Below are positions 28,941-64,000 of a stretch of 64,000 nucleotides of DNA, piece by piece. Every line of letters starts with the position of its first letter. Position 1 is the first letter of the stretch. The position numbers and the translations under genes were made by a program. This DNA is from Setophaga petechia (lineage: Eukaryota; Chordata; Aves; Passeriformes; Parulidae): NCBI GenBank assembly GCA_024362935.1, contig JANCRA010000003.1, positions 8,670,001-8,734,000 of the forward strand. The letters run 5' to 3'. The notes beneath the pieces are model-generated. The model worked only from the letters and a program-made list of their open reading frames with translations. It ran no database searches and was not told the origin of the DNA.

Positions 28941-31900
28941 ATGAGGTTATAAAATATCACCATAAAACATAGAGAGTCTGTTTTGAAAGCTTATCCCCAC
29001 TTATAAAGAAAGCTTATCCCCACTTATAAAGTCAGCCCTTGTTTGCTGGCTGCAATCCACAGGACAGTCAACCCCCTGCTTTTCTTAGCAGATGCCTCAA
29101 AGCATGAGCAGTGAAAAGATTGTGACTGCTGGTCTAGGAGAAAAGTACTGAGTTAGCAGTGTTACACTGGTCCACAAAGGTGGGGAATTTCTCCTGTCAG
29201 AGTGTTATTTTCCTCCTCGGCAAGGAGAGTAGTAGAGAAAAAAGGGAACAAAATTCTGCCTGTATTCCCCATCCAAAACCACTGTAGTAAACCTCTATCA
29301 AGGCATTCAGGATGGGACACCAGTATCACTCTGGTGGTATTTGTAACAGAAAAAGTCTCTCCCTCTATTTCTGTCTGTCATTTGGGCATGACTTATTAAG
29401 AAGTATTCCCAAAGGAATACTGCTGCCCACTAATACCTTGCTGGTCAGCACTACCATTACATTATTGTCTCTGTACCATTTAAATTGCATCCACGGAAAC
29501 ATTCCTTACAGGAACATCAAGATTTACTTTGCCATGTTTGAAAAGTCTGACATTTCCACAGACCAGCACTTCCCATTTGCAAATGTGAGGCTGCCTTCCA
29601 AAGGGCTTTACACACCAGAGCTCCCTCAGGACAGCAAAGACCACAGCAAGCAGCCAAGCCTTGACTAATGGGCTGACACTGCTTTATGGTAGGACACCCT
29701 CCAGCTGCTGGAAAGCAATGAAGGGAGGCTGAAAGACTACCAGAGAGAGAGGGAACTTTTAGCCTGCCCATTTCTGCTGAAGGACTAGAGTAGTAACCTT
29801 TATGGATCCACCAATACACAAGATAAGCAGATCTTTTTATCCAGCTTTTGTTACTTTTAAAATTAATAAATAAATCTCTTAATTATTTCATCATGAATCA
29901 ACCTAGCAAAATTCTTTTCACCCCACTTATATCACAGATTTTAGATGTAGGGACTAGATGGCACCAAACACTTTTGAAAGCATCAACTTATATTTTTATG
30001 GATCTATATATATATGAGGGATGTTTTTACTGTGATAGATGCAAATTATTAAAAAGGCCCTAGGGTTCCAGACAGAGATTATATATTTTAATATATCATT
30101 TGGTTCCTTTGTGAAGATCAGATATTCAATTCCTTCCTCAGATCTGATAAGGATGTGCTGAGGGTCATGCTAAATCCAGGATAGGAGCAAGGTGCCCTCA
30201 GCCTAGGTGCTGTGACTGCTGGATTCACACAGCAGAACAAATTTGATGTGACTCAGATGTGGGCACATGACTGTAGCTCTCTTGTGTTAGTCAGACACTA
30301 CAGAGCTGTGTTCCTGTGTGCTGGCTCTGTGTCAGGGGATGAGGGGGGCAGAAGATGCACAGAGCTGACTCAACAAAGATTTCTGAGCAAGGATCCAGCA
30401 GCCACTCAGCCCACTGCAGTCTGTAGCTCTGGCATTTTGGAGTGGACTTCAGGAAACCTCAGCCCAGCTGCAAGCTGTTGGCAAATCAATAACACCACTG
30501 ATTTTATTCACTACTGAGTTTTGAGAGATTGGGTGTTAGCACCTGCAGAGCAGAAAGCAGTGCCAAAAGGAGGGAGGAGGGGTCACAAGCCTTATGGCAG
30601 AGTAGGAGGACCAAGCTTCTATAAGCTACCAGAAATAGAGGGATCTGCCAAAAGTGGTTACAAATAAAATAAGCATTTATATTTGTAACTCATGATCATA
30701 GCATTGATATTATGATTCCCATCCTCCTTTCATGCCTCTGATAATCTGATGCTGAAAATGATTGCTTCAGTGCAAGTGGAGAGCTCAAAGTTGCAGCCCC
30801 CAGTGACCAGCACTCCCTCTAATGCAGTGATCCAACACTACCCTACTGTCTCCTCCAGCTGCACTGTTCTCCCATGGGTGGTGTCAGAATTAAGCCTTTG
30901 TCCTCTTGGTGCCACCACTGAGCCACAATAATGTCTGGCTGAAGCCCTGAACTTCCAAAGATAGACACACAGTGTGTGGCCAATATGCCGAAGGGTTTCA
31001 GAGTCCTGCCCACCTTCAGGCTACCTCATTTTGCCACACTGAAACAGACTCTTTGCTCTTGTCAATGACGCTGATTTCAAGAGAAAGATGTGAACTAATA
31101 ATGATGAAGAAGGCTGGGACTGGCCTTTCCTCCTTATTCCCTCTTCTCCACGGCACTGCTGAGGTGTTTATTACTTTGGTGTCCACCTGCTGACCTGTAC
31201 AGCATAAATCTGAACTGAGGCAAGTCTTACAGTTCAATAAATATAGAATACCTTTAAAAGTCATACTTGAGCAGATAAAAAGTCTGGGAAATGTCATCCA
31301 AATGTTATCATAAGTGAAATAAAATGAAATTATAATTCAGCCAGATTCAGCATTACTCAAATGCAGTGGAAAGTAGTGCTTCCAATGCCTGAATCTGCTG
31401 CCTTATTAGTTTCTCTCCTGAAAACCATAAATCCTTGATCAGATATCTTCTCCTGAACTGCAAAATAGAATGAGTAAAGTTCAATTTGGCTAGGCAAGAG
31501 CAGCAGTTACTGAGATCGTTGAGATTTAGAGCAACAGAGTTCTACAAATCAGCTGTCCTGGTATGACAACTTGTCATACAAGGACTGATAAAATCTTCCT
31601 TACAAGTGGTTATTTGGAAGATTATGTCTGTACTCAGTGGACCTGGATCCTTCAAAAGCATGAAATTACTTTGAAAATTGAGGGGACATGTTTTTTGCGG
31701 GTACTTAGATAATCACTTGTCTACCTCATTACACAGCTAAATACCTCTGAAAATGTAATCTTCAGTCACTGTCTCAAAGGAGACAGATTTTTAGAGGTGC
31801 ACAGATGGCCAGGAGGTTTACAAAGTGCCTGGTTGTTTAGTTCACTATAAAATCAACGAGAGTTAAGGGTCTCGTATAAAACCACGTTGCTCTGCCTAAT

Positions 31901-40990: not shown

Positions 40991-41252
40991 CTATCCAACT
41001 TGAATTAATTTGGAAGGAACATTTCAGTTTCACAGTGTTATCCATGTGCAAAAGCAGATGAAGATACACAAATGTAAAGTAAACAAACAAAATTCATTTG
41101 ATTACATTTGTTTCCAGAAATGCACAAAGATTGTGGCCATGACAAAGAACCAGATATGGTGAGCTATGTAATGTCATAAACAGCACTCATCTGACACCTC
41201 TATTGACATATACCCTTTTCTCCTCTCTTCTTGCCATCTCTTTATGTTGCAG

Positions 41253-42626
41253 TTGCCAACTGACTTTCAGGAAAGGGTCAGCATCCACCTGGAGAAACAC
41301 GGGTGCAGCCTTTCTGTCCCCTTGTGCCACACTTCTTATGCCGATACCATTCCCACCTGCGTCATTGCCAAAGTGCTGGAGAAACCAGACCCACACAGCT
41401 TGTCCTCACACCTGTCAAGCCCATCCACGAGGGATCTCAATTTTCAGGACTCTGCTGGAAAAGTGGGACAAAGACCCCAGTACAAGTCTGACATCTACTG
41501 CAGTGACACGGCCCTTTACTGCCCCGAGGAGAGGAGGAGGGAGAGGCGGCAGAGCGTGGACACGCAGGTGAAGGACGTGGGCTTCCTGCGCTCCCAAAAC
41601 TCCACGGACAGCACCGTGGAGGAAGACGGTTTCCATTCCAGCTTCTCCCACGAAGCCTTCCCAGAGTACATCACCTCTCTGCCAACCTCCAGCTCCTACT
41701 CCAGCTTCAGCGTCACGTCTGAGGAGAAGGAGAACGCCCAAGCCAACACGCTGACAGCCTCGCAGCAGGCGATCTACATGAGCAACCGCGAGGAGCTGTT
41801 TGAGAGGAAGTCGCCCGTGGGGTACGAGCACCAGGGGAGCCCCAGGTTCGCCAAGCCCAAGCCCGCGCAGCACATGGAGCTCGCTGAGGACAACGAGAAC
41901 TCGCCCACTTTCACCAGGACTCTGCCCCCGTATGCAAACGAACCTTTTCATTTCTCAGCCATAACACCACAGCAGGCTCTGGCAAACCAGAAAATGAGGA
42001 ATGAGTGCAGGAGCACCCACCTTTCAGAAGAAGACTTGCCAGGGAGGTGGAGGCAGCTGAGCGTGGAGGACATTGGAGCGTACTCCTACAGGAACGCTGG
42101 CAGGCTGTCGCCCTGCAGTTTCTCAGAGCAGTACTACAGCAGCCCCATCAAGAAGGGGGACAGTCGAACAAGCCCCATCTATGCTAGCTACAAAGCAGAC
42201 AGCTGCTCAGAGGGAGATGACATCTGCCAAAGCAGACTTGTGGATTCTTGCTTCCTGAGAACAGACAGTGGCCTGAACATTGACATCAGCACAAGCTGTA
42301 AACAGGACAAATTGCCCACTTACAAAACAAAAGAATCAAGAGACCAAAAAAACGAAAGGATCACTGTCCAGTTATGCAGTAGCAAAAACATCGAAAATAG
42401 CCCGGTATTGAAAAGAGAATACGTGGACGTGAGCCCCAACAGCTCAGCAGAGTCACTCAATCAGAGTTCAGTGGAGGCTCCAGAAATCCACCAGTCTTCC
42501 ATGGATCAAGGAAGCCATCCGGGGGTTCACAGCAAACAGCCGCAGTTCCAGCGGACGGGGAGCACTGGTCTGAGTCGGAAGGACAGCCTTACAAAAGCAC
42601 AGTTATACGGAACCCTTCTGAACTAG
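41253..42626 (+). CDS. BEGAIN: BEGAIN terminal coding exon (C-terminal 457 residues)
   Basis: The acceptor AG at 41251-41252 precedes TTG CCA ACT, and the frame stays open to TAG at 42624. The product begins LPTDFQERVSIHLEKHGCSL. It contains the family blocks PTCVIAKVLEKPDP (near 41350-41391), DIYCSDTALYCPEERRR (41490-41540), SLPTSSSYSSFS (near 41680), TLTASQQAIY (near 41750) and LSVEDIGAYSY (42058-42090). It ends GLSRKDSLTKAQLYGTLLN, the BEGAIN signature C-terminus. With the two upstream exons, 521 residues are visible, against about 590 for human BEGAIN. BEGAIN is known to bind the guanylate-kinase domain of PSD-95/SAP90 at synapses through its C-terminal part. The protein is Ser-rich and hydrophilic, without membrane segments. 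The middle of the exon is GC- and CpG-richer than its surroundings. The ATG at 41244 is within the splice acceptor. A BEGAIN paralogue is the main alternative. Confidence 0.93.
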   Translation: MPTDFQERVSIHLEKHGCSLSVPLCHTSYADTIPTCVIAKVLEKPDPHSLSSHLSSPSTRDLNFQDSAGKVGQRPQYKSDIYCSDTALYCPEERRRERRQSVDTQVKDVGFLRSQNSTDSTVEEDGFHSSFSHEAFPEYITSLPTSSSYSSFSVTSEEKENAQANTLTASQQAIYMSNREELFERKSPVGYEHQGSPRFAKPKPAQHMELAEDNENSPTFTRTLPPYANEPFHFSAITPQQALANQKMRNECRSTHLSEEDLPGRWRQLSVEDIGAYSYRNAGRLSPCSFSEQYYSSPIKKGDSRTSPIYASYKADSCSEGDDICQSRLVDSCFLRTDSGLNIDISTSCKQDKLPTYKTKESRDQKNERITVQLCSSKNIENSPVLKREYVDVSPNSSAESLNQSSVEAPEIHQSSMDQGSHPGVHSKQPQFQRTGSTGLSRKDSLTKAQLYGTLLN

Positions 42627-46300: not shown

Positions 46301-49300
46301 AAATGTCATTTTAATGATGAAAACCAAAAGCAGAATGAGTGAGACACACAACACTGACCAAGGGGAAAACAAAGGGGGCTGAAAGAGATCAGAGTCAGGC
46401 ATATTGAATCACATATCAAAATAGAAAAAAGTACAAAAATGGTACTAGGGATATGGGTTATAATTCACCAGGAATGACAGTGCAGAACTATTATGAAGTC
46501 GTGGAAAGAAAATGCATTTTTGAAATGTTTTCTCACTCCCAATTAATCTTATAAAACTGTGCAAAATCTCAATCATTATGAATAATGCAGGTCACTTTTG
46601 TTAAACCTTTTAGAAGTCTAGAAATAGCTAAAATTTTAAGTTTAAATCATGGCAAGCCATAACACAGGTCATTTCCAACTCAACAGTTTCTAACTTCTTC
46701 ACCCAAACTAGAAAATTAATCAAACTAATTCTTTCCCCTTCCAGCACTTTTAATTAAAAAGAATCCATAATCTATCACAGAGCATGATTATGCAGCTACT
46801 TAGATTAATTTCCCCTTGTTTAATTTTAAAGTACTGATTGACATCCTTTGGACTTTCATATAAAATTCTTACCCCCTGTTCATGTGTGCAACCTTGTAAC
46901 CTTTGCAGACTATTGTTATATGTCTCCTTAAATTGTGTAGATGTAGTCATCTGAGATTTTTCTCTTGGAAGACACTCCTTTCAGGACACTAAATGCTTCT
47001 TATTCTCTTCAAGGAATCCTCCTCACCTCACTGCTGCTGAACATCACAATATTTTACAATGAGCACTGAGCTGTTCCAACCCCCAGTACCAAAGTGCAAT
47101 TCAAGGAAAGGTGAGGCTACACAGATCAGAGCAGCTTTTATTGACCCTCCATGCTGACCTGCGTGCATTAAACCATGCCATGTTTCTACATGGTCTTATA
47201 TCAACATTACCAGAGGTTTTTCATTGTTTTCCTAATTTTTCCTCCAAGTCTTTGAAAATAAGCTTCATTGTTAGAAACAGCTCTGGCCATTCAGTTATTC
47301 TTTGACAACCTGCCACTCATTCCAGCATCTCCCACATTGTTTTCTCTTTGGTATTTTATTTTTACTGTATTTTAGTAATTGAGAGGGTTTGTTTAGCTGC
47401 AGTTAAAAAGAGTAATTTGAATGTTCATGCAATGAAAGATTTTTCTCCTTCTGTACCCCACAAGGTCTTAGACCCCAGCTTAATGCCCAAGGCACCAAGG
47501 TTTTGGAATGCTGCTGTTCCAAGCCCCTGAGCTCTCTCTTCTCCAGGTTCCTGCAGCCCCCGTGTTGCAGAGAAAGGCACTCTGCTTTCTGCCAGATAGG
47601 AGCCCCTTAAGGATGTTGCCAGCCCCACATCCCACACCTGTGGGGAGTGGTAAAGCCCCTCCCACCCCTCCTTGCTGAGGCAAGGATCATCCCTGCAGAC
47701 AGTTCCAGAGTATCCAGAGTAGAGAGAACAACTCCATCTGCAAGGGCCAAAACAAGATGCACAGACACAAGATGTAATTGCTGGAAAATATCCCTGATGA
47801 GAGTTAAGTGCCTCCTCATCAACATACCCATCATGATAGATATACATTAATACTCTAACTGTGATTATTCAGAAAAATTCTAATTTTTAAAGTTAGCTCT
47901 AATGAATGAATATTTAAATATATTCACCCATTTCAATTTTTGCTTTGCAATTTATGAGTCAGAGCAGACATGCATGAGCTGCAGAGCCACAGCACTATTT
48001 ACTACACTGACAGCTCTATGATTTAGAAGAAGAGAAACAACAGCAAATCCCAGAATAATTAAATTTGTAACATCAGTGTCAGCCAGCGTCCTTTCCCATT
48101 CCAGGTTTTCACATGTGACATTGAAAAACAGATCATAAAGAACAAAACATCCTCAGCGCATAAGGGTTATAAATTTCAGTATGTTCCCACACAAGAGGTT
48201 TTTTGTTAGAGTTTTTATTGTTACAGTAGAAATCCTCTTAATCTGGGGACCAGTTGCGTGGGGCGACATGAGGAGGGAGACCTACACTGAATGTCCAGAC
48301 AGCACGAAGCCTCTCACCTCAAGAAACCACTGTGCCACCAGCCTGAGGGCATGGGGACAACAGCAGCAGCACTTCTAACTGATAAATCACGAGTATTGAC
48401 TCTGGTGGGATTATTTTTGACAAGGAGTTAAATCCCGATTTATGTTCACTTGACTTAAATTTGTCAATTTACTTCAATGGACCTTCAGCATTTCACAGTC
48501 TTTATCCTCTAAAAATGAGGGAAATACTCTTATCCCCAAAGCCCTGGGAGTTACACTAAGATGACATGCCTAATCCCAGAGAGATAGTAAGGAGTTAGCT
48601 ATTTTAGTTTTAGGAGATTTTAAGGCTCTTGGCCTTTTGCTCATGCTGTAACTTGAGAAACAGTTGAGAAGGAAAGCTCAATTTCTCAAGCTCAGCCTTA
48701 ACACAGGAACTGAATAATTGTTTTCTGATTCATCCCCACTTACCTGAGCTTTCAGAGTCCACAATAGCCTGAAGGTGCGGAAGGAAAGAGCTGACACTGG
48801 AAGAAAATTCAAAATTTAATCTGTGCATCCAAACTATTAAAAGGCCAAATTACTTCTAAGACAATCATGCTTGTCTACAATAAACTGGGGTTTTTTTCGT
48901 ATTTTACCCAGAGAACACATACACTGCCAAAGAAAGTATGTAACTGAGATGAGAACTAGGATCTTGCTGTCTGGAACCAACTTGGATTTTCCTGGGAGTC
49001 TGGAAGGATACATAGGGGAATGGAGGCAGAGCAAGGATGATTGCTCTGTCAGCACAAAATGCAGTAAAACTTTCCAGTCACAACATTTACTGTATTCCCC
49101 TAATTTTTAGGCTACATTATGAAAAAGGTCTCAGGAAAAGGCTTTTAGAAACAGACTGCTTTATTTCAATCTAATTTTTCCCATTTTCCCCACCTCTTTT
49201 AAAAGAGAAAAAGAAAAAATATGTTTTGCAAGCTGCAGTGATATGGGGGCTTTTGCTAGGGCTGTCAGTCCTGCCTATAAACACCTGACTTGTGTCAGTA

Positions 49301-49574
49301 GGGAAAAACAATCCTGAAACTAAATCAGTTTAACAGAAAAACATTTGCTACTCAAGGAGAAATGGCCTAATTGAAAAGAATGTCAGTAAGCAGCTCTTTA
49401 CTGAGATTTCAGAGTCCAGAAAGCTGAGTTTTGGGAACAAAACAAGTCCAGTGAAGTCAAAATTTGCAAAGATCCCAAAAAATACTTATATTTAAAAAAG
49501 GTTTGGAATGCATTTACCATTCTTTCATTCTCTTTGATGATAAAGATGACATGCACTTTTTGGAACTCCAGATG
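43370..49574. other. Intergenic DNA between BEGAIN and the satellite array
   Basis: No gene recognised on either strand. A purine-rich tract lies at about 43925-43990. A GC-richer unique segment at 47460-47770 gives overlapping open frames on both strands (up to 140 codons on the - strand at 47425-47847), with no resemblance to a known protein. In mammals the 3' neighbour of BEGAIN is the convergent WDR25 gene, but no WD-repeat exon was recognised here. Confidence 0.55.
43925..43990. repeat. Purine-rich low-complexity tract
   Basis: The + strand is almost only G and A for about 65 bases, with irregular GGAGAG, GAGGAAGAG and AAAGG units. No coding content. Confidence 0.65.
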
Positions 49575-49789
49575 ACACCAAACCATGCCAAAACTAAGCT
49601 CACAGATGTTGCAAAAGCAGGGGAATAAGTCAAGGAGGAAGACACAACTTGCAGGGGAAGATATAAGAAACAGGGCATGGATACTAAAAATAGAAAAAAA
49701 ATTTTCTTTCCCAAAGTCAAAGCCATCAAAAAGCATGGCATGCCATCAAGTGCAGGGACATGCACCAAAGATTCTTCTATTACTCCCCA

Positions 49790-49842
49790 CTGAAATTTCA
49801 TTTCCCTTCGGGTAGGGAAACGGAATCTTGCGAACCCGAAAA
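49790..49842. repeat. Short (one-armed) version of the hairpin region
   Basis: In this first monomer only the right-arm sequence is present, as TTTCATTTCCCTTCGGGTAG then GGAAACGGAATCTTGCG. It still contains a small 7-bp inverted repeat (TTTCCCT ... AGGGAAA). The monomer is 403 bp, about 32 bp shorter than hairpin-bearing monomers. Confidence 0.85.
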
Positions 49843-50368
49843 CAAAGACTTACAAACACTCTGCAAAGGACATAGGATCAAAAGAAATGCAATTGAAAAA
49901 AACCCCACAAAAACCAGAAAATTCAGAGTTTTAGTCTCTTCAAAAAATGCTCTGGAAGGAAATGAGCTGCATTGCAAAGGACCAAACCATGCAAAATTAA
50001 GCTCACAGCCGTTGCACAAGCAGGGGAAAAAGACAAAGATGAAGACACAACTCACTGGGGAAAGTATAAGAAACACGGCAAGGATACCTAAAAAAAAAAA
50101 AAAACAAATTTCTTTCCCAAAGTCAAAGCCATCAAAAGGCAGGCCATATGCCATCAAGTGCAGGCACATGCAGCAAAGCTTGCCAAAATTGATCCCCGCT
50201 GAAGGCCAAAACACAAAGGAAGGACTTCTAAACTCCCTGGAATGGAGATACCATCCAAGCAATTGCAATCGGAGGAGAAAAAAACAAAATTGGGGAAATT
50301 TTGTCATTCCGAGAAAATGGCCAGGATTCAATCTGGCGCATTGCAAAGGACCAAACCATGCCAAAACG

Positions 50369-51907
50369 AAGCTCACAGCTGTTGCAAAAGCAGGGGAATA
50401 AGTCAAGGAGGAAGACACAACTTGCAGGGGAAGATATAAGAAACAGGGCATGGATACTAAAAATAGAAAAAAAATTTCTTTCCCAAAGTCAAAGCCATCA
50501 AAAAGCATGGCATGCCATCAAGTGCAGGGACATGCACCAAAGATTCTTCTATTAGTCCCCATTGAAATCGCAAGATTCCGTTTCCCTTCCCGAAAGGAAA
50601 TTTCATTTCCTTTCGGGAAGGGAAACGGAAACTTGCGAACCCCAAAAGAAAGACTTACAAACACTCTGCAAAGGACATAGGATCAAAAGAAATGCAATTG
50701 AAAAAAACCCCACAAAAACCAGAAAATTCAGAGTTTTAGTCTCTTCAAAAAATGGTCTGGAAGGAAATGAGCTGCATTGCAAAGGACCAAACCATGCAAA
50801 ACTAAGCTCACAGATGTTGCACATGCAGGGGAAAAAGACAAAGACAAAGACACAACTCGCTGGTGAAGATCAGACGGACATGGCATGGATAGCTAAAAGA
50901 AAAAAAAAAAATTTCTTTCCCAAAGTCAAAGCCATCAAAAGGCAGGCCATATGCCATCAAGTGCAGGCACATGCAGCAAAGCATGCCAAAAGTGATCCCC
51001 GCTGAAGGCCAAAACACAAAGGAAGGACTTCCAGACTCCCTGGAATGGAGATACCATCCAAGCAATTGCAATCGGAGGAGAAAAAAAAAAAGTTGGGGAA
51101 ATTTTGTCATTCCGTGAAAATGGCCAGGATTAAATCCGGAGCATTGCAAAGGACCAAAAGATGCCGAAACTAAGCTCACAGGTGTTGCACAAGCAGGGGA
51201 AAAAGACAAAAACAAAGACACAACTCGCTGGGGAAGATCAGAGGGACATGGCATGGATACCAAAAAGAAAAATAAAAAAATTTCTTTCCCAAAGTCAAAG
51301 CCATCAAAAGGCAGGCCATATGCCATCAAGTGCAGGCACATGCAGCAAAGCTTGCCAAAATTGATCCCCGCTGAAGGCCAAAACACAAAGGAAGGACTTC
51401 CAAACTCCCTGGAATGGAGATACCATCCAAGCAATTGCAATCTGGGGAGAAAAAAAAAAAGTTGGGGAAATTTTGTCATTCCGTGAAAATGGCCAGGATT
51501 CAATCCGGAGCATTGCAAAGGACCAAAAGATGCCAAAACTAAGCTCACAGATGTTGCACAAGCAGGGGAAAAAGACAAAGACAAAGACACAACTCGCTGG
51601 GGAAGATCAGACGGACATGGCATGGATACCAAAAAGAAAGAAGAAAAAATTTCTTTCCCAAAGTCAAAGCCATCAAAAGGCAGGCCATATGCCATCAAGT
51701 GCAGGCACATGCAGCAAAGCTTGCCAAAATTGATCCCCGCTGAAGGCCAAAACACAAAGGAAGGACTTCTAAACTCCCTGGAATGGAGATACCATCCAAG
51801 CAATTCCAATCGCAGGAGAAAAAAAAAATTGGGGAAATTTCGTCATTCCGAGAAAATGGCCAGGATTCAATCTGGCGCATTGCAAAGGACCAAACCATGC
51901 CAAAACT
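50369..51907 (+). repeat. Satellite four-monomer unit A-B-C-C
   Basis: Monomer spacings of 435, 368, 369 and 367 give a 1539-bp unit. It equals the 1170-bp trimer plus one additional C-type monomer, consistent with unequal exchange between neighbouring C monomers. Confidence 0.85.
50569..50637. repeat. 69-nt hairpin in A monomer, copy 1
   Basis: Two 33-base arms are reverse complements around a 3-base TTC spacer. This copy has one mismatch in the right arm (GGAAACTTGCG instead of GGAATCTTGCG). All other full copies are perfect. Confidence 0.95.
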
Positions 51908-52107
51908 AAGCTCACAGCTGTTGCAAAAGCAGGGGAATAAGTCAAGGAGGAAGACACAACTTGCAGGGGAAGATATAAGAAACAGGGCATGGATACTAAA
52001 AATAGAAAAAAAATTTCTTTCCCAAAGTCAAAGCCATCAAAAAGCATGGCATGCCATCAAGTGCAGGGACATGCACCAAAGATTCTTCTATTAGTCCCCA
52101 TTGAAAT

Positions 52108-52176
52108 CGCAAGATTCCGTTTCCCTTCCCGAAAGGAAATTTCATTTCCTTTCGGGAAGGGAAACGGAATCTTGCG
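52108..52176. repeat. 69-nt perfect hairpin in A monomer, copy 2
   Basis: Arms run from CGCAAGATTCCG inward and back out to CGGAATCTTGCG, with a TTC spacer. No mismatch in 33 pairs. Confidence 0.95.
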
Positions 52177-52907
52177 AACCCCAAAAGAAAGACTTACAAA
52201 CACTCTGCAAAGGACATAGGATCAAAAGAAATGCAATTGAAAAAAACCCCACAAAAACCAGAAAATTCAGAGTTTTAGTCTCTTCAAAAAATGGTCTGGA
52301 AGGAAATGAGCTGCATTGCAAAGGACCAAACCATGCCAAAACTAAGCTCACAGATGTTGCACAAGCAGGGGAAAAAGACAAAGACAAAGACACAACTCGC
52401 TGGGGAAGATCAGACGGACATGGCATGGATACCAAAAAGAAAAAAAAAAAATTTCTTTCCCAAAGTCAAAGCCATCAAAAGCCAGGCCATATGCCATCAA
52501 GTGCAGGCACATGCAGCAAAGCTTGCCAAAATTGATCCCCGCTGAAGGCCAAAACACAAAGGAAGGACTTCCAGACTCCCTGGAATGGAGATACCATCCA
52601 AGCATTTGCAATCGGAGGAGAAAAAAAAAAAGTTCGGGAAATTTTGTCATTCCGTGAAAATGGCCAGGATTACATCCGGAGCATTGCAAAGGAGCAAAAG
52701 ATGCCAAAACTAAGCTCACAGATGTTGCACAAGCAGGGGAAAAAGACAAAGACAAAGACACAACTCGCTGGGGAAGATCAGACGGACATGGCATGGATAG
52801 CTAAAAGAAAAAAAAAAATTTCTTTCCCAAAGTCAAAGCCATCAAAAAGCATGGCATGCCATCAAGTGCAGGGACATGCACCAAAGATTCTTCTATTAGT
52901 CCCCACT

Positions 52908-52952
52908 GAAATTTCATTTCCCTTCGGGTAGGGAAACGGAATCTTGCGAACC
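52908..52952. repeat. Short (one-armed) version of the hairpin region, second copy
   Basis: Same short form as at 49790, including the CTTCGGGTAGGG core, in the C/A hybrid monomer of 403 bp. Two monomers thus share the one-armed state. Confidence 0.85.
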
Positions 52953-53482
52953 CGAAAACAAAGACTTACAAACACTCTGAAAAGCACATAGGATCAAAAG
53001 AAATGCAATTGAAAAAAACCCCACAAAAACCAGAAAATTCAGAGTTTTAGTCTCTTCAATAAATGGTCTGGAAGGAAATGAGCTGCATTGCAAAGGACCA
53101 AACCATGCAAAATTAAGCTCACAGATGTTGCACAAGCAGGGGAAAAAGACAAACATGAAGACACAACTCACTGGGGAAAGTATAAGAAACACGGCAAGGA
53201 TACCTAAAAAAAAAAACAACAAATTTCTTTCTCAAAGTCAAAGCCATCAAAAGGCAGGCCATATGCCATCAAGTGCAGGCACATGCAGCAAAGCTTGCCA
53301 AAATTGATCCCCGCTGAAGGCCAAAACACAAAGGAAGACTTCCAAACTCCCTGGAATGGAGATACCATCCAAGCAATTGCAATCGCAGGAGAAAAAAACA
53401 AAATTGGGGAAATTTTGTCATTCCGAGAAAATGGCCAGGATTCAATCTGGCGCATTGCAAAGGACCAAACCATGCCAAAACT

Positions 53483-54652
53483 AAGCTCACAGCTGTTGCA
53501 AAAGCAGGGGAATAAGTCAAGGAGGAAGACACAACTTGCAGGGGAAGATATAAGAAACAGGGCATGGATACTAAAAATAGAAAAAAAATTTCTTTCCCAA
53601 AGTCAAAGCCATCAAAAAGCATGGCATGCCATCAAGTGCAGGGACATGCACCAAAGATTCTTCTATTAGTCCCCATTGAAATCGCAAGATTCCGTTTCCC
53701 TTCCCGAAAGGAAATTTCATTTCCTTTCGGGAAGGGAAACGGAATCTTGCGAACCCCAAAAGAAAGACTTACAAACACTCTGCAAAGGACATAGGATCAA
53801 AAGAAATGCAATTGAAAAAAACCCCACAAAAACCAGAAAATTCAGAGTTTTAGTCTCTTCAAAAAATGGTCTGGAAGGAAATGAGCTGCATTGCAAAGGA
53901 CCAAACCATGCAAAACTAAGCTCACAGATGTTGCACAAGCAGGGGAAAAAGACAAAGACAAAGACACAACTCGCTGGGGAAGATCAGACGGACATGGCAT
54001 GGATAGCTAAAAGAAAAAAAAAAATTTCTTTCCCAAAGTCAAAGCCATCAAAAGGCAGGCCATATGCCATCAAGTGCAGGCACATGCAGCAAAGCTTGCC
54101 AAAATTGATCCCCGCTGAAGGCCAAAACACAAAGGAAGGACTTCCAGACTCCCTGGAATGGAGATACCATCCAAGCAATTTCAATCGGAGGGGAAAAAAA
54201 AAAAAGTTGGGGAAATTCTGTCATTCCGTGAAAATGGCCAGGATTACATCCGGAGCATTGCAAAGGACCAAAAGATGCCAAAACTAAGCTCACAGCTGTT
54301 GCACAAGCAGGGGAAAAAGACAAAGACAAAGACACAACTCGCTGGGGAAGATCAGAGGGACATGGCATGGATACCAAAAAGAAAAAAAAAAAATTTCTTT
54401 CCCAAAGTCAAAGCCATCAAAAGGCAGGCCATATGCCATCAAGTGCAGGCACATGCAGCAAAGCTTGCCAAAATTGATCCCCGCTGAAGGCCAAAACACA
54501 AAGGAAGACTTCCAAACTCCCTGGAATGGAGATACCATCCAAGCAATTGCAATCGCAGGAGAAAAAAACAAAATTGGGGAAATTTTGTCATTCCGAGAAA
54601 ATGGCCAGGATTCAATCTGGCGCATTGCAAAGGACCAAACCATGCCAAAACT
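53483..54652 (+). repeat. Satellite higher-order unit A-B-C, copy 1 (1170 bp)
   Basis: Monomers A (435 bp), B (368 bp) and C (367 bp) make a trimer that recurs at exactly 1170 bp. Comparison by eye with the next unit shows only a handful of substitutions, mostly in the B/C boundary region, so the two copies are recent duplicates. Confidence 0.92.
53683..53751. repeat. 69-nt perfect hairpin in A monomer, copy 3
   Basis: Identical to the copy at 52108, with 33 perfect pairs and a 3-base spacer. It lies in the first 1170-bp trimer. Confidence 0.95.
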
Positions 54653-55822
54653 AAGCTCACAGCTGTTGCAAAAGCAGGGGAATAAGTCAAGGAGGAAGAC
54701 ACAACTTGCAGGGGAAGATATAAGAAACAGGGCATGGATACTAAAAATAGAAAAAAAATTTCTTTCCCAAAGTCAAAGCCATCAAAAAGCATGGCATGCC
54801 ATCAAGTGCAGGGACATGCACCAAAGATTCTTCTATTAGTCCCCATTGAAATCGCAAGATTCCGTTTCCCTTCCCGAAAGGAAATTTCATTTCCTTTCGG
54901 GAAGGGAAACGGAATCTTGCGAACCCCAAAAGAAAGACTTACAAACACTCTGCAAAGGACATAGGATCAAAAGAAATGCAATTGAAAAAAACCCCACAAA
55001 AACCAGAAAATTCAGAGTTTTAGTCTCTTCAAAAAATGGTCTGGAAGGAAATGAGCTGCATTGCAAAGGACCAAACCATGCAAAACTAAGCTCACAGATG
55101 TTGCACAAGCAGGGGAAAAAGACAAAGACAAAGACACAACTCACTGGGGAAGATCAGAGGGACATGGCATGGATAGCTAAAAGAAAAAAAAAAATTTCTT
55201 TCCCAAAGTCAAAGCCATCAAAAGGCAGGCCATATGCCATCAAGTGCAGGCACATGCAGCAAAGCTTGCCAAAATTGATCCCCGCTGAAGGCCAAAACAC
55301 AAAGGAAGGACTTCCAGACTCCCTGGAATGGAGATACCATCCAAGCAATTTCAATCGGAGGGGAAAAAAAAAAAAGTTGGGGAAATTTTGTCATTCCGTG
55401 AAAATGGCCAGGATTCAATCTGGCGCATTGCAAAGGACCAAACCATGCCAAAACTAAGCTCACAGATGTTGCACAAGCAGGGGAAAAAGACAAAGACAAA
55501 GACACAACTCGCTGGGGAAGATCAGAGGGACATGGCATGGATACCAAAAAGAAAAAAAAAAAATTTCTTTCCCAAAGTCAAAGCCATCAAAAGGCAGGCC
55601 ATATGCCATCAAGTGCAGGCACATGCAGCAAAGCTTGCCAAAATTGATCCCCGCTGAAGGCCAAAACACAAAGGAAGGACTTCCAGACTCCCTGGAATGG
55701 AGATACCATCCAAGCAATTGCAATCGCAGGAGAAAAAAAAAAATTGGGGAAATTTTGTCATTCCGAGAAAATGGCCAGGATTCAATCTGGCGCATTGCAA
55801 AGGACCAAACCATGCCAAAACT
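54653..55822 (+). repeat. Satellite higher-order unit A-B-C, copy 2 (1170 bp)
   Basis: Same A (435), B (368), C (367) order and lengths as the preceding unit. Its third monomer carries the CAAACCATGCC entry context instead of CAAAAGATGCC, so its B/C junction has been exchanged with another monomer class. Confidence 0.92.
54853..54921. repeat. 69-nt perfect hairpin in A monomer, copy 4
   Basis: Exactly 1170 bp after copy 3 and identical to it. Confidence 0.95.
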
Positions 55823-56881
55823 AAGCTCACAGCTGTTGCAAAAGCAGGGGAATAAGTCAAGGAGGAAGACACAACTTGCAGGGGAAGATATAAGAAACAG
55901 GGCATGGATACTAAAAATAGAAAAAAAATTTCTTTCCCAAAGTCAAAGCCATCAAAAAGCATGGCATGCCATCAAGTGCAGGGACATGCACCAAAGATTC
56001 TTCTATTAGTCCCCATTGAAATCGCAAGATTCCGTTTCCCTTCCCGAAAGGAAATTTCATTTCCTTTCGGGAAGGGAAACGGAATCTTGCGAACCCCAAA
56101 AGAAAGACTTACAAACACTCTGCAAAGGACATAGGATCAAAAGAAATGCAATTGAAAAAAACCCCACAAAAACCAGAAAATTCAGAGTTTTAGTCTCTTC
56201 AAAAAATGGTCTGGAAGGAAATGAGCTGCATTGCAAAGGACCAAACCATGCAAAACTAAGCTCACAGATGTTGCACAAGCAGGGGAAAAAGACAAAGACA
56301 AAGACACAACTCGCTGGGGAAGATCAGACGGACATGGCATGGATACCAAAAAGAAAAAAAAAAAAATTTCTTTCCCAAAGTCAAAGCCATCAAAAGGCAG
56401 GCCATATGCCATCAAGTGCAGGCACATGCAGCAAAGCTTGCCAAAATTGATCCCCGCTGAAGGCCAAAACACAAAGGAAGGACTTCCAAACTCCCTGGAA
56501 TGGAGATACCATCCAAACAATTGCAATCGGAGCAGAAAAAAAAAAAGTTGGGGAAATTTTGTCATTCCGTGAAAATGGCCAGGATTAAATCCGGAGCATT
56601 GCAAAGGACCAAAAGATGCCAAAACTAAGCTCACAGCTGTTTCACATGCAGGGGAAAAAGACAAAGATGAAGACACAACTCGCTGGGGAAGATCAGAGGG
56701 ACATGGCATGGATACCAAAAAGAAAAAAAAAAAAATTTCTTTCCCAAAGTCAAAGCCATCAAAAGGCAAGCCATATGCCATCAAGTGCAGGCACATGCAG
56801 CAAAGCTTGCCAAAATTGATCCCCGCTGAAGGCCAAAACACAAAGGAAGGACTTCCAAACTCCCTGGAATGGAGATACCAT
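55823..56881 (+). repeat. Satellite higher-order unit A-B-C, copy 3 (truncated)
   Basis: A (435 bp) and B (369 bp) are complete. The third monomer, from 56627, breaks off after GGAATGGAGATACCAT, about 255 bp into the monomer, where unrelated sequence begins. This is the right edge of the array. Confidence 0.9.
56023..56091. repeat. 69-nt perfect hairpin in A monomer, copy 5
   Basis: Exactly 1170 bp after copy 4 and identical to it. Confidence 0.95.
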
Positions 56882-57785
56882 GCTTGCCAGGCCTTTCTCC
56901 TTGCAAAGTTTTTTACACTGAAACGGCAAATGCCTCAGCATACAGAATTTGGAAATCACTGCAGAACACCTGGGATCCGCGTCATTTTTTCACATACTCT
57001 GACACTACATGTATCATATTTCTCAACACTCAGCAGGTTTTATTTATACTTGCTTGCAAGCCAAAGCTGTTTATCAATTCACACAAAAAAGTTCTATTCA
57101 AAAAAAGGCATCCTGGCCACAAACTTCCTCGGCACATCAGCTCCTTCTTCCATTACTGCCATTCACACTAGCTTGATGCTGATACTGAGGAATCGCTCTG
57201 GATATTCTCCTGCTGAGGAGATAAAGCTTCACACCGCTGTTGGAAGAAATAGCTCTTGCTGGAGAAAAATAACCCAAGCAAGCAACAAAACAGGGAAGAC
57301 TTCAAAGAAGCAGGACTGCTTAGAGAGCCCATTGCACTGGACTGGTGCAGCTGCCAAGGAGGTGATAAGGAAGCCTTTCTCCCCCACCTAAGAAAGGCTT
57401 TCCATTTCATTGCAGAGCACACTCACTCTCTGCAGGAGCTGCACAGCTGGAAGAGTCTGGCAGAAGCCTCATGACTGCAACATTGCTGGCAGACAGCAGC
57501 TGGCAAGGTCTCTTTCTAAGCTATTCCTTCAGAGGCTGGTGACAGTCAGATTTTGATCCCATCTGAACCAGCACCAGTCTCAGATGATGCCTTTAAGGCT
57601 CTCATTTGCTACACAGATGCTGCAGGAATAGTTGTATCCACACAGCAGCATTTCCTCATTACATCAGTGATGGAGATTCCATGGGCTGTCTGGGCAGGTT
57701 TTGAAGTCTGTGGCATGCAAAGTGCAAAGGAGAGATGTGAATACTTGGTGGGGTGAGAGGAGGTAAAATGTAAGGCAAGAATATA

Positions 57786-57801
57786 AGAGAGAGAGAGAGA
57801 G
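57786..57801. repeat. (GA)n microsatellite
   Basis: About eight uninterrupted AG units. Confidence 0.9.
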
Positions 57802-58620
57802 GCATGTCTCCATTTCATGTGTTAGGTACACAATCCTAGCCTAGCATTGCACAGCAACAAACAGACAACAGAATGAAGTCAGACCCATCAGAAAATAAGG
57901 GAGAAACAGCAACCAAGCCTGGGAGCCTCCCAGACCTTCAGGATCAAGGCTACAGTTTGCCATTAATATTGCTGAGTCTGCTTCCTGTTGTCCGAGAAAT
58001 AGAGACTGGGAGTCAGGAGAGGATTCTGTTTTCCAGTGGGCTCACAGGGCAGATCTGAGAAAATCAGGGTGTCCCCTGTTGTTGCAGAACCACATCTGCA
58101 GAGCAGGCACCAGGACAGTAGCTCCTCAGAAATGTACAACAGTGAGGAAAAAACATATAGCATAACTTGACTTACCTGTCAAAATTGTTCCTGTTTAATG
58201 GCAGTGTCAGAGTCAGGCTTCTCCCTCATTGTGCTAGCTGAATTAATCAATTTTTCTCTGCTCCAGCCCTACGTGTGTCAAGCAGGAGCTACCCACTGCA
58301 TTCAAATCTTATGGTTTCAACATTCATCAGCATTTTCTCTCCTCTCTGAGCACTAGTGAAAGTTTTCATGCCACAGTTTATTTACTGTACATTCAATTCA
58401 TGCCTCTAGCCATTCTAGAGACTTCCCACACACCAAGTCCTGTACAGGCTTTAGGGTACATTTTAAACCTACTGAAGACACACAGACTGTTCTCTCTGGC
58501 TATGGAACTGTCACATTTAACTGCCTTACACATTTAAATAACTTTGAAATTATTCAGGAATTCAGACAAATTATAATATAAACTGTAGATATACTACTGA
58601 TCTTGATCCTTGTCAGCATA

Positions 58621-62100: not shown

Positions 62101-62350
62101 ACACAGAATCAGAGAGTCACAGAATATTCTGAGTTGGAAGGAATCCATCATAATCACAGTCCAGCTCCTGGCAGCACCATCCCCAAGAGTCACACCACGG
62201 GCCTGAGAGCATTGTCCAGACACTCCTGGAACTCTGGTAGGCTTGTTGCTGTGACCACTTCCCTGGGGAGTCTGTCCCAGTGCTTGACCACCCTCTGGGT
62301 GGAAAACCTTTTCCTGATATCTAAACTAAGCCTCCCCTCACTCATTTCTG
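62101..62350 (-). mobile_element. CR1 LINE 3' fragment
   Basis: The + strand starts ACACAGAATCAGAGAGTCAC AGAAT, then GAGTTGGAAGGAATCCATCA, and later ACTTCCCTGGGGAGTCTGTC, CCACCCTCTGGGTGGAAAAC and CTTTTCCTGATATCTAAACT. This is the reversed order of a CR1 tail and 3' ORF region. The far end is approximate. Confidence 0.87.
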
Positions 62351-64000
62351 TGAGCATATCCAAATTTGAACGCAGGATTTCATATGAAAGTGTTGACCCA
62401 TAACTGTTGGCCAAAATGCAAGCATTTAAGCCCAGGTCCAGGTAACACTTGTCTTTTGTAAAAAAAGGACACATTTTCTGTTGCTCCAGTAGATTTAGTT
62501 CAATTGCACCAAAGACAGCATTCAACTTACTATAAGTAACTGGAAAAATACAAGGAGCAATTTCTTATTCCCTCAGAGAAACCTTGCCGGACTTGCAAAT
62601 CTCCCTCTCCCTGAAGGGCATTCAAAATGCACCAAACAACAAAAATCCCCAAAGATGCATAATTAATGTGGTAGTTCAGCTATGATGTGGAAAAACAAGG
62701 AAAACATTGTATACTTCATTAATAAAAAGATTGTTTAAAATTGCTCTTCTGAAGTACAGACCAGAGGTCCAAATGTAAATTATACCAGAATCTGAAGTGC
62801 CAAAAGCATTGTCTTTATTTTAATAATGACATGTTGTTTCCACTGCCTTCTCTGTAAAGCTCCAAAATGCCAATTATCCACGGAAGTACACAGCTTCTCA
62901 GGTGAATTTTGCAATTCACCTGTCACTGAAGCAGCCGTGACCAGACTGCTGCAGCAGTGCCAGAGTTAAAAACCGAACACTAAAGTGCTGAGAGATTGTC
63001 CTGCAAGCTCAGCCACAAATTACAGCAAATTTATGTTGGTTTTTAGAAGTGCAGTACAGGCCAAAGAAAAGCTCTTGGCTGTGGCTAGCATGGCAATGCA
63101 GCCTGAGCAAATTACACAACTGAGAGGCAGGTTTACCATCCTCTGAGGTTGTCTCAGTCCCACCTTGCAGCTTCACAGCTCTGGCAAGGTCACAGGATGA
63201 GTGCAGCAAAGTTCCCCCATCTGAAATGGACCATGAAATTATCCCTGGATGGTGATGGGACACTTGGACAAGCGGAAGCTCTGCTCAGCCAGGCTGGTGC
63301 CCAGAGAAAGGTAAAGATGAGATTTTGGATATGATTAAGATTTCACTTCATGGCTTTGCCCAGATTCTGAAGTGACATATCTGGTCAAAACATTACCTGT
63401 TTGAGGTTACAACAAAGCAAAATTAGTCCATGACATGCCTACAGTTCAGAGATTGCATGTTTCATATTAATGGCATAATAAACATTTTCATTTTTGTACT
63501 GAAAGCAATACGTGATTTGAACTAATGTCTACATTTCAAGTAGTTCCATGCATTAAAGCAAATAGCAAAGATGTGCAAACTAACCATCTGGACTAGAGAT
63601 CTTTTTAAGAAACTCTTTTTACAAATAAGAACTTGCCTTAGCAAGGATTAAAAAAGCAAAGAAAGGGAATTAATAAAAATATTTTATTTGCTCTATTCTA
63701 TATATATATAAATTCTAATATATGTGTAAGCTATGGCATTCTTTCCCTCATATTCAACTCAAATAATTTCCTACAGACCATGAGGTGGAAGAGCTCTGGA
63801 ATTTATTTACAACTCTTAGTGGCAAGCCAACAAAGGAGGTGGTTACAGAATAAAACATAAAAATAACATAGTTCATGGTGAAATATAGCTAAATTATATT
63901 CAGAGGCAATTCTTTGCTACTTGCTTATAAACAAGTGGTACTAATCTGAACATAGGGAAATTGCTTTCTCAATGTAAGCTGGTTTGTACCAGAGAAGGTA
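62351..64000. other. Intergenic DNA, no gene recognised
   Basis: AT-rich sequence with a short TA run at 63699-63711. No open frame above 85 codons lies wholly within it, and no exon or repeat family was recognised. Confidence 0.5.

What the first reader, a model, noticed from the sequence alone, without database searches (positions are those of the whole stretch)
49575..56881. Uncatalogued 368/435-bp satellite with an exact 1170-bp higher-order repeat
About 19 head-to-tail monomers of three classes form a higher-order repeat. In the 3' half, A-B-C trimers recur at exactly 1170 bp (53483, 54653, 55823). The 5' half has four-monomer variants of 1539 and 1575 bp and an older-looking edge. This organisation resembles centromeric satellites, but the array is short and sits about 6 kb beyond the end of a single-copy neuronal gene. 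Near-identity of the trimers implies recent expansion, probably with copy-number variation between individuals. I do not recognise the monomer as a named satellite.
Basis: seen in the sequence. Interest (0 to 1): 0.78.

Follow-up and report, generated by a model that had tools for sequence, protein, structure and literature searches.

The report
Bird satellite with flipping DNA hairpin
The repeat block is a small stray island of a satellite DNA family that forms much larger arrays elsewhere in the same bird-like genome, and one of its two repeat types carries a near-perfect DNA hairpin whose tip occurs in both orientations.

Summary
The array is real: 19 head-to-tail monomer slots at 49575-56881 with the stated periods of 1170, 1539 and 1575 bp. 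It is a 7.3-kb island, with single-copy flanks, of a genome-wide satellite: a 20-base core pattern matches 7,572 places (reversed control 0), and hits span roughly 60-470 kb at about ten loci. Monomers are S (367-369 bp) and L (436 bp). L carries a palindrome with 34-bp arms and a 3-base loop. The loop occurs as TTC or GAA (1,211 and 1,213 matches genome-wide), while the arms vary half as much as the rest of L. In the window four L monomers are identical over 436 bp while S monomers between them differ by about 1-4%. This argues against recent expansion of whole trimers and for separate homogenisation of L, probably by palindrome-assisted gene conversion (inferred). Centromeric function is possible but unproven: C11 and C12 hold several arrays, two complete pattern samples show none on C4-C8 or C10, no CENP-B box was found, and there are no CENP-A data. 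No repeat library was available; 'uncatalogued' means only 'not found in the full-text searches made'.

The parts
49575..56881 (+). Satellite island: 19 monomer slots, order L S | L S S S | L S | L S | L S S | L S S | L S S(truncated)
49575..49968 (+). m01: truncated one-armed L monomer (left edge of the array)
50338..50773 (+). m03: L436 monomer, 2 differences from the other L436 copies
51877..52312 (+). m07: L436 monomer, identical to m11, m14 and m17
52681..53084 (+). m09: 404-bp chimera, S-type 5' part joined to one-armed L-type 3' part
53452..53887 (+). m11: L436 monomer, identical to m07, m14 and m17
54622..55057 (+). m14: L436 monomer, identical to m07, m11 and m17
55792..56227 (+). m17: L436 monomer, identical to m07, m11 and m14
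50568..50638 (.). Palindrome in m03: 34-nt arms, 97% complementary, 3-nt loop
52107..52177 (.). Palindrome in m07: 34-nt arms, 100% complementary, 3-nt loop
53682..53752 (.). Palindrome in m11: 34-nt arms, 100% complementary, loop TTC; DNA fold of 53660-53770 gives -43.9 kcal/mol, z -13.4
54852..54922 (.). Palindrome in m14: 34-nt arms, 100% complementary, 3-nt loop
56022..56092 (.). Palindrome in m17: 34-nt arms, 100% complementary, 3-nt loop
54028..54107 (+). Example (in S monomer m12) of the core, monomer positions 141-220, among the less variable stretches across arrays (S 0.024-0.042, L 0.009-0.042 per 20 bases)
48575..49574 (.). Left flank: single match in the genome (itself)
56882..57881 (.). 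Right flank: single match in the genome (itself)

Best explanation
The feature is a 7.3-kb interstitial island of a satellite DNA family whose copies elsewhere in the same genome spread over loci of roughly 60-470 kb (shown). Most likely a fragment of a larger array was once pasted into single-copy DNA (inferred from unique flanks and the absence of a target-site duplication). The family has two interleaved monomer classes, S (about 368 bp) and L (436 bp). L carries a 71-bp palindrome (34-bp arms, 3-base loop). The palindrome changes in ways expected if it really folds: the loop occurs in both orientations, tip deletions occur as mirror images, and one-armed forms exist (all shown in sequence). 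L monomers are on average more uniform than their S neighbours in the five arrays with enough units to compare, and in this island four L copies are identical while S copies differ by about 1-4% (shown). The inferred mechanism is that the palindrome extrudes as a hairpin or cruciform, is cut or stalls replication, and is repaired from another L monomer nearby. That repair homogenises L by gene conversion separately from S, and sometimes inverts the loop. Unequal exchange between phased monomers makes the 805-, 1170-, 1539- and 1575-bp units.
For: Genome-wide family: 5,741 + 1,831 core matches, reversed control 0 + 0; C12:19.37-19.54 Mb is 92-100% satellite in each of 17 consecutive 10-kb stretches. 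Single-copy flanks; no shared duplication of 6 bp or more at the junctions. L identity: 0 of 436 segregating sites in the last three L copies against about 23 of 650 in the S copies (pairwise differences halved), Fisher p about 1e-5; L mean divergence below both S neighbours in 5 of 5 arrays, e.g. 0.023 against 0.036-0.038 in 102 C12 units. Loop flips: 116 TTC, 27 GAA, 4 other of 147 full-length palindromes; 1,211 TTC and 1,213 GAA matches genome-wide; per-site variation 0.49 in the loop, 0.019 in the arms, 0.041 in the rest of L; 12 parsimony changes on a tree of 133 L flanks against a mean of 22.6 for shuffled labels, and one GAA copy whose 320-bp flank is 100% identical to that of a TTC copy. 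Mirror-image tip deletions on C12 (2 copies) and C87 (1 copy). Passages of PMC7999016 say that palindromes with longer, more similar arms and a short or absent spacer carry a higher risk of recombination.
Against: No read data, so assembly or consensus error at hairpins is not excluded. No compensated pairs were seen in the arms (0 in 147 palindromes), so covariation does not show selection on the fold. Low L variation could partly be constraint or lower mutation rather than conversion; a core shared with S (positions 141-240) is also of low variation without any palindrome. The S neighbours may mix subclasses, which raises S divergence. In C12 the excess of L uniformity is modest (L below the following S in 75% of pairs), and C9, C19 and C2 rest on 3-4 units each. 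Loop states are clustered by array, so the near-equal genome totals rest on few independent arrays; recombination between copies could raise the parsimony count.
Confidence: 0.6

Rival explanations
1. The family is the centromeric satellite of this species. The large arrays are centromeres, the palindrome is a cruciform that helps CENP-A loading in the absence of CENP-B, and the window island is a relic or seed of a centromere. (Not exclusive of the best explanation, which concerns how the sequence evolves.)
For: Hits span about 400 kb on C3 and 470 kb on C12; the C19 contig ends inside the satellite; multi-monomer units. Passages of PMC8997354 report dyad symmetries predicted to form cruciforms at centromeres without CENP-B boxes, including chicken.
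Against: C12 carries copies at 1.73-1.82, 14.58-14.65 and 19.25-19.72 Mb, and C11 at 6.49-6.65 and 12.08-12.14 Mb. Complete samples of 46 and 67 hits show none on C4-C8, C10 or C13-C18. No CENP-A data.
Confidence: 0.35
2. The island and its trimers are the product of one recent local expansion.
For: Exact 1170-bp spacing; first and second trimer about 99% identical, third 98%.
Against: S monomers of the same trimers differ at about 23 of 650 sites while L differs at 0 of 436, which one block duplication would not give.
Confidence: 0.12
3. L monomers are uniform because of selection or low mutation on a protein-binding site, not because of gene conversion.
For: Arms are about half as variable as the rest of L across 13 arrays (several represented by one monomer), and an 80-100-bp core has low variation in both S and L.
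Against: In the window the identity covers all 436 bases of L plus 24-219 flanking bases on a side, depending on the pair, not only the core and arms; two one-armed L copies persist beside them.
Confidence: 0.2
4. Assembly or consensus artefact: collapsed or copied L units, and hairpin mis-calls.
For: Satellites are often misassembled (general knowledge); no reads were available here.
Against: Flanks are unique and there is no N in the window; both loop states occur over a thousand times each with right arms within two mismatches; S copies are individually distinct.
Confidence: 0.08

Closest known systems
Avian centromeric satellites (e.g. TleSat01-1220 of Turdus leucomelas, PMC11375038, passages read)
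   Same: High-copy tandem satellite in what looks like a bird genome; multi-locus; long repeat unit.
   Different: TleSat01 has a 1220-bp unit and 48% A+T and gave signals at the centromere of all chromosomes; this family has 368/436-bp monomers, about 57-58% A+T, several arrays on some contigs and none sampled on several large ones. Sequences could not be compared.
Alpha-satellite higher-order repeats with n-box and CENP-B-box monomers (PMC8997354, passages read)
   Same: Two diverged monomer classes interleaved in phased units, one class carrying a special motif.
   Different: The motif is a 71-bp palindrome, not a CENP-B box; the largest stretch read has no dominant unit; function not tested.
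Dyad symmetries and predicted cruciforms at centromeres (Kasinathan and Henikoff 2018, as described in PMC8997354)
   Same: Inverted repeats in satellite DNA without CENP-B boxes.
   Different: Those are described as short (<10 bp); here arms are 34 bp and near-perfect, in about a quarter to a third of monomers (103 L monomers among those segmented from the C12 stretch; 2,424 right-arm against 7,572 core matches), with the loop in both orientations.
Recombinogenic palindromes (review PMC7999016, passages read)
   Same: Short spacer and highly similar arms, the class said to extrude, stall forks and be cut.
   Different: Repeated more than two thousand times inside a satellite; recombination here is inferred from sequence only.

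Membership tests
Satellite DNA | Head-to-tail tandem monomers | tested here: met
Satellite DNA | High copy number at several genomic loci | tested here: met
   7,572 core matches; copies confirmed by fetched sequence on 13 contigs and by pattern only on C36, C81 and C105
Satellite DNA | No coding content or transposon hallmarks | tested here: met
   5 open frames in and across the array gave no Pfam match above cut-off, one weak match below it; junctions share no duplication of 6 bp or more
Higher-order repeat array | Multi-monomer unit more alike between units than between its monomers | tested here: inconclusive
   Window trimers about 99% against 73-76% for complete L436 versus complete S, but the two S positions are 95-98% alike. 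C12:1.73 Mb shows steps of 805 bp or multiples in most of its length; C12:19.4 Mb shows no dominant lag
Centromeric satellite | CENP-A occupancy | not testable with these tools
   no chromatin data
Centromeric satellite | A single main array on each chromosome | tested here: not met
   three loci on C12, two on C11, none in two complete samples on C4-C8 and C10; contigs may not be whole chromosomes and the samples could miss small arrays
CENP-B-box satellite | CENP-B box (core recalled as NTTCGNNNNANNCGGGN) | tested here: not met
   best match in one S and one L monomer has 2 mismatches
Named avian satellites (Repbase/Dfam) | Sequence match to a library consensus | not testable with these tools
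   no library held; literal text searches negative

The most novel reading that the evidence does not exclude
A satellite that keeps itself uniform through its own hairpin. The palindrome in one monomer class acts as a built-in break and repair initiator that drives class-specific gene conversion and free loop inversion (about 50:50 genome-wide), and in a CENP-B-less genome doubles as the cruciform module of the centromere.
Probability: 0.15. Interest if true: 0.8.

Novelty: new variant of a known kind. Interest (0 to 1): 0.52.

Why it matters
How satellite arrays stay uniform, and whether DNA hairpins in them do anything, are open questions. Here one monomer class carries a near-perfect palindrome, is on average more uniform than its neighbours in the five arrays compared, and records hairpin events as loop flips. 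More than two thousand natural replicates therefore sit side by side with a hairpin-free class as an internal control. That makes palindrome-driven gene conversion, and the cruciform idea of centromere identity, directly testable in one genome.

Tried and rejected
Coding reading: long open frames occur on both strands in the array, but 5 of them (239, 344, 235, 205 and 272 aa) gave no Pfam family above cut-off; repetition of units near multiples of three keeps frames open. RNA family: none at gathering score in the whole window. Dimeric origin of S from two 184-bp halves: weak (z 3.3), not claimed. CENP-B box: not found. Compensatory change in the palindrome arms: none in 147, so no covariation argument is made. 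'Palindrome is the least variable stretch of L': not so with the loop included (134 of 366 windows of 71 bases are lower), but the arms alone are lower than the rest. One array per chromosome as a centromere sign: dropped. Direction of change between one-armed and two-armed L: unresolved; a one-armed copy also occurs on C1:32.97 Mb, and deletion between flanking GAAAT repeats would explain such copies. The planned genome-wide count of one-armed L did not complete. Gene identity of the upstream exon was not searched beyond Pfam and PDB; the name given below is recalled.

Rows dropped or capped: 156 matches were found, two of them the one-armed copies of the window; 147 of standard length were analysed, and the other 9 are listed. 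One search used 133 L copies with a readable loop and enough flank. One search used only monomers covering at least 85% of the reference; several of its 13 L arrays hold a single monomer. One search used only L units of at least 425 bp with an S on both sides. One search used 60 random monomers of the C12 set. One search scored 31 of 891 candidates, so its list is a lower bound. Searches list only the first 100 of 127, 1,213 and 1,211 hits. Searches (46 hits; 67 hits) are complete lists; probes at two of the sites (C93, C124) showed no satellite.
Full report
What is there. The array reported at 49575-56881 exists as described. Monomer starts give units of 367-369 bp (S), 436 bp (L) and one of 404 bp, in the order L S | L S S S | L S | L S | L S S | L S S | L S S(cut). 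The spacings 1170, 1170, 1539 and 1575 are exact. Both 1-kb flanks match only themselves in the assembly, there is no N in the window, and the two junctions share no duplication of 6 bp or more. The strand shown is rich in A over the array (AT skew about 0.4).

Where else it is. The window lies at C3:8670001-8734000 of a 1.222-Gb assembly in 687 contigs. A 20-base core pattern with at most one mismatch matches 7,572 places and its reversed control none; at about 390 bp per monomer that is roughly 3 Mb (inference, a lower bound). On C12 each of 17 consecutive 10-kb stretches from 19.37 to 19.54 Mb is 92-100% satellite, on one strand apart from the palindromes. Probes at 19.20 and 19.75 Mb are not satellite, and hits run from 19.247 to 19.715 Mb. 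Other hits span C3:0.277-0.677, C1:2.74-2.92, C2:4.51-4.63, C11:6.49-6.65, C11:12.08-12.14, C12:1.73-1.82, C12:14.58-14.65 and C87:1.93-2.21 Mb; continuity was checked only where sequence was fetched. C19 ends inside the satellite. The window is closest to C12:19.4, C3:0.3, C1:9.8 and C12:14.6 Mb (95-96%), then C2:4.5 (94%) and C9, C11 and C19 (about 92-94%); older-looking copies at 77-86% lie on C75, C1:32.97, C35, C87 and C40. The island is therefore a small outpost of a large family, with a bigger locus 8 Mb away on the same contig.

The palindrome. Five of the seven L-class monomers in the window carry an inverted repeat with 34-nt arms and a 3-nt loop, four perfect and one at 97%. As single-stranded DNA it folds at -43.9 kcal/mol against -12.0 for shuffles. 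Of 103 L monomers segmented from the C12 stretch, 103 carry the first arm and 101 the second, with up to 5 mismatches allowed. Of 147 full-length palindromes, 118 keep all 28 counted pairs, and none shows a compensated change. The loop reads TTC in 116, GAA in 27, other in 4. Genome-wide, with two mismatches allowed, the loop plus right arm and its flank occurs with TTC 1,211 times and with GAA 1,213 times, controls 0. Arrays differ in loop state: among exact matches listed, C1:2.74-2.92 Mb has about 89 TTC and 4 GAA; C9 has 3 GAA of 4 and C19 3 of 5 in the stretches read. With 13 arrays weighted equally, variation is 0.49 per site in the loop, 0.019 in the arms and 0.041 in the rest of L. On a tree of 133 L flanks the loop state needs 12 changes (shuffled mean 22.6, minimum 17), and one GAA copy has a 320-bp flank identical to that of a TTC copy. 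Tip deletions on C12 and C87 are reverse complements of each other. An inversion of the palindrome leaves perfect arms unchanged and shows only in the loop, so these look like traces of inversion; doing this by hairpin or cruciform is inference.

Two clocks in one array. Monomers m07, m11, m14 and m17 are identical over all 436 bases; m03 differs at two sites. S monomers at the same position of the unit differ by 4-13 sites per pair. In the last three trimers L has 0 of 436 segregating sites and S about 23 of 650 (Fisher p about 1e-5). The identical tract runs past L by 24-219 bases on a side, depending on the pair. In five of five arrays L is on average less diverged than the S before and after it: window 0.0018 against 0.042 and 0.026 (5 units); C12 0.023 against 0.038 and 0.036 (102 units); C9, C19 and C2 likewise with 3-4 units each. 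This argues against recent duplication of whole trimers and favours conversion among L monomers. Selection or low mutation on L remains possible for the core and the arms, but less easily for a whole identical monomer; mixed S subclasses may exaggerate the contrast.

Higher-order structure. C12:1.73-1.82 Mb shows mostly steps of 805 bp or multiples, an L-S dimer. The 170 kb read from C12:19.4 Mb mixes units of one L with 1 to 8 S and has no dominant period. The window trimers are one local form among these. Monomer m09 is an S/L chimera, direct evidence of exchange inside a monomer.

Function. Centromeric function is the natural guess, and PMC8997354 (passages) describes cruciform-prone dyad symmetries at centromeres without CENP-B boxes, including chicken. 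Here no CENP-B box was found. But there are three loci on C12 and two on C11, and the two complete samples show none on C4-C8, C10 and C13-C18. I give the centromere reading 0.35. For the window island itself no function is proposed.

Is it new? No repeat library was available. Two literal-sequence searches of 5.39 million open-access papers returned only unrelated papers, and topic searches gave no bird satellite paper that I could match (listings; passages read of PMC8687609, PMC10234393, PMC11375038 and PMC7757076). Two further searches were on DNA structure and palindromes. The organism is inferred to be a bird from a CR1-like reverse-transcriptase fragment (recognised from memory); no species is claimed. 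A satellite that combines a hairpin class with loop inversion and class-specific homogenisation is, to my knowledge (recalled, not searched exhaustively), a new variant of a known kind.

Noticed in passing
window 41172-42626 (+): 484-aa open frame ending in a stop, in a stretch of higher GC; no Pfam or PDB match. From memory it looks like the last exon of BEGAIN, a neuronal gene; not tested.
   Followed up: partly
window 62190-62564 (-): Open frame resembling the end of a CR1 LINE reverse transcriptase (recognised from memory), which points to a bird or reptile.
   Followed up: no
L012, around G000:C12:19407065: About 750-bp insertion inside the satellite with TG...CA ends and a 5-bp repeat ACATG on both sides, like a solo LTR. 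Drops in satellite cover of similar size in L026, L027 and L028 may be the same insertion carried along; not checked.
   Followed up: partly
L051, G000:C1:2738001-2744000: Edge of the C1 array switches strand several times, unlike the stretches read inside other arrays.
   Followed up: no
L079, G000:C161:148501-149700: A palindrome copy whose loop is about 30 nt instead of 3; possible intermediate or insertion.
   Followed up: no
L050, G000:C2:37252468: The left edge of this array begins inside the palindrome of an L monomer, as if the breakpoint fell at the hairpin.
   Followed up: no
L045, end of G000:C19: The contig ends inside the satellite, so this array is probably longer than assembled.
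   Followed up: no
window 28985-29031: Perfect 23-bp tandem duplication.
   Followed up: no
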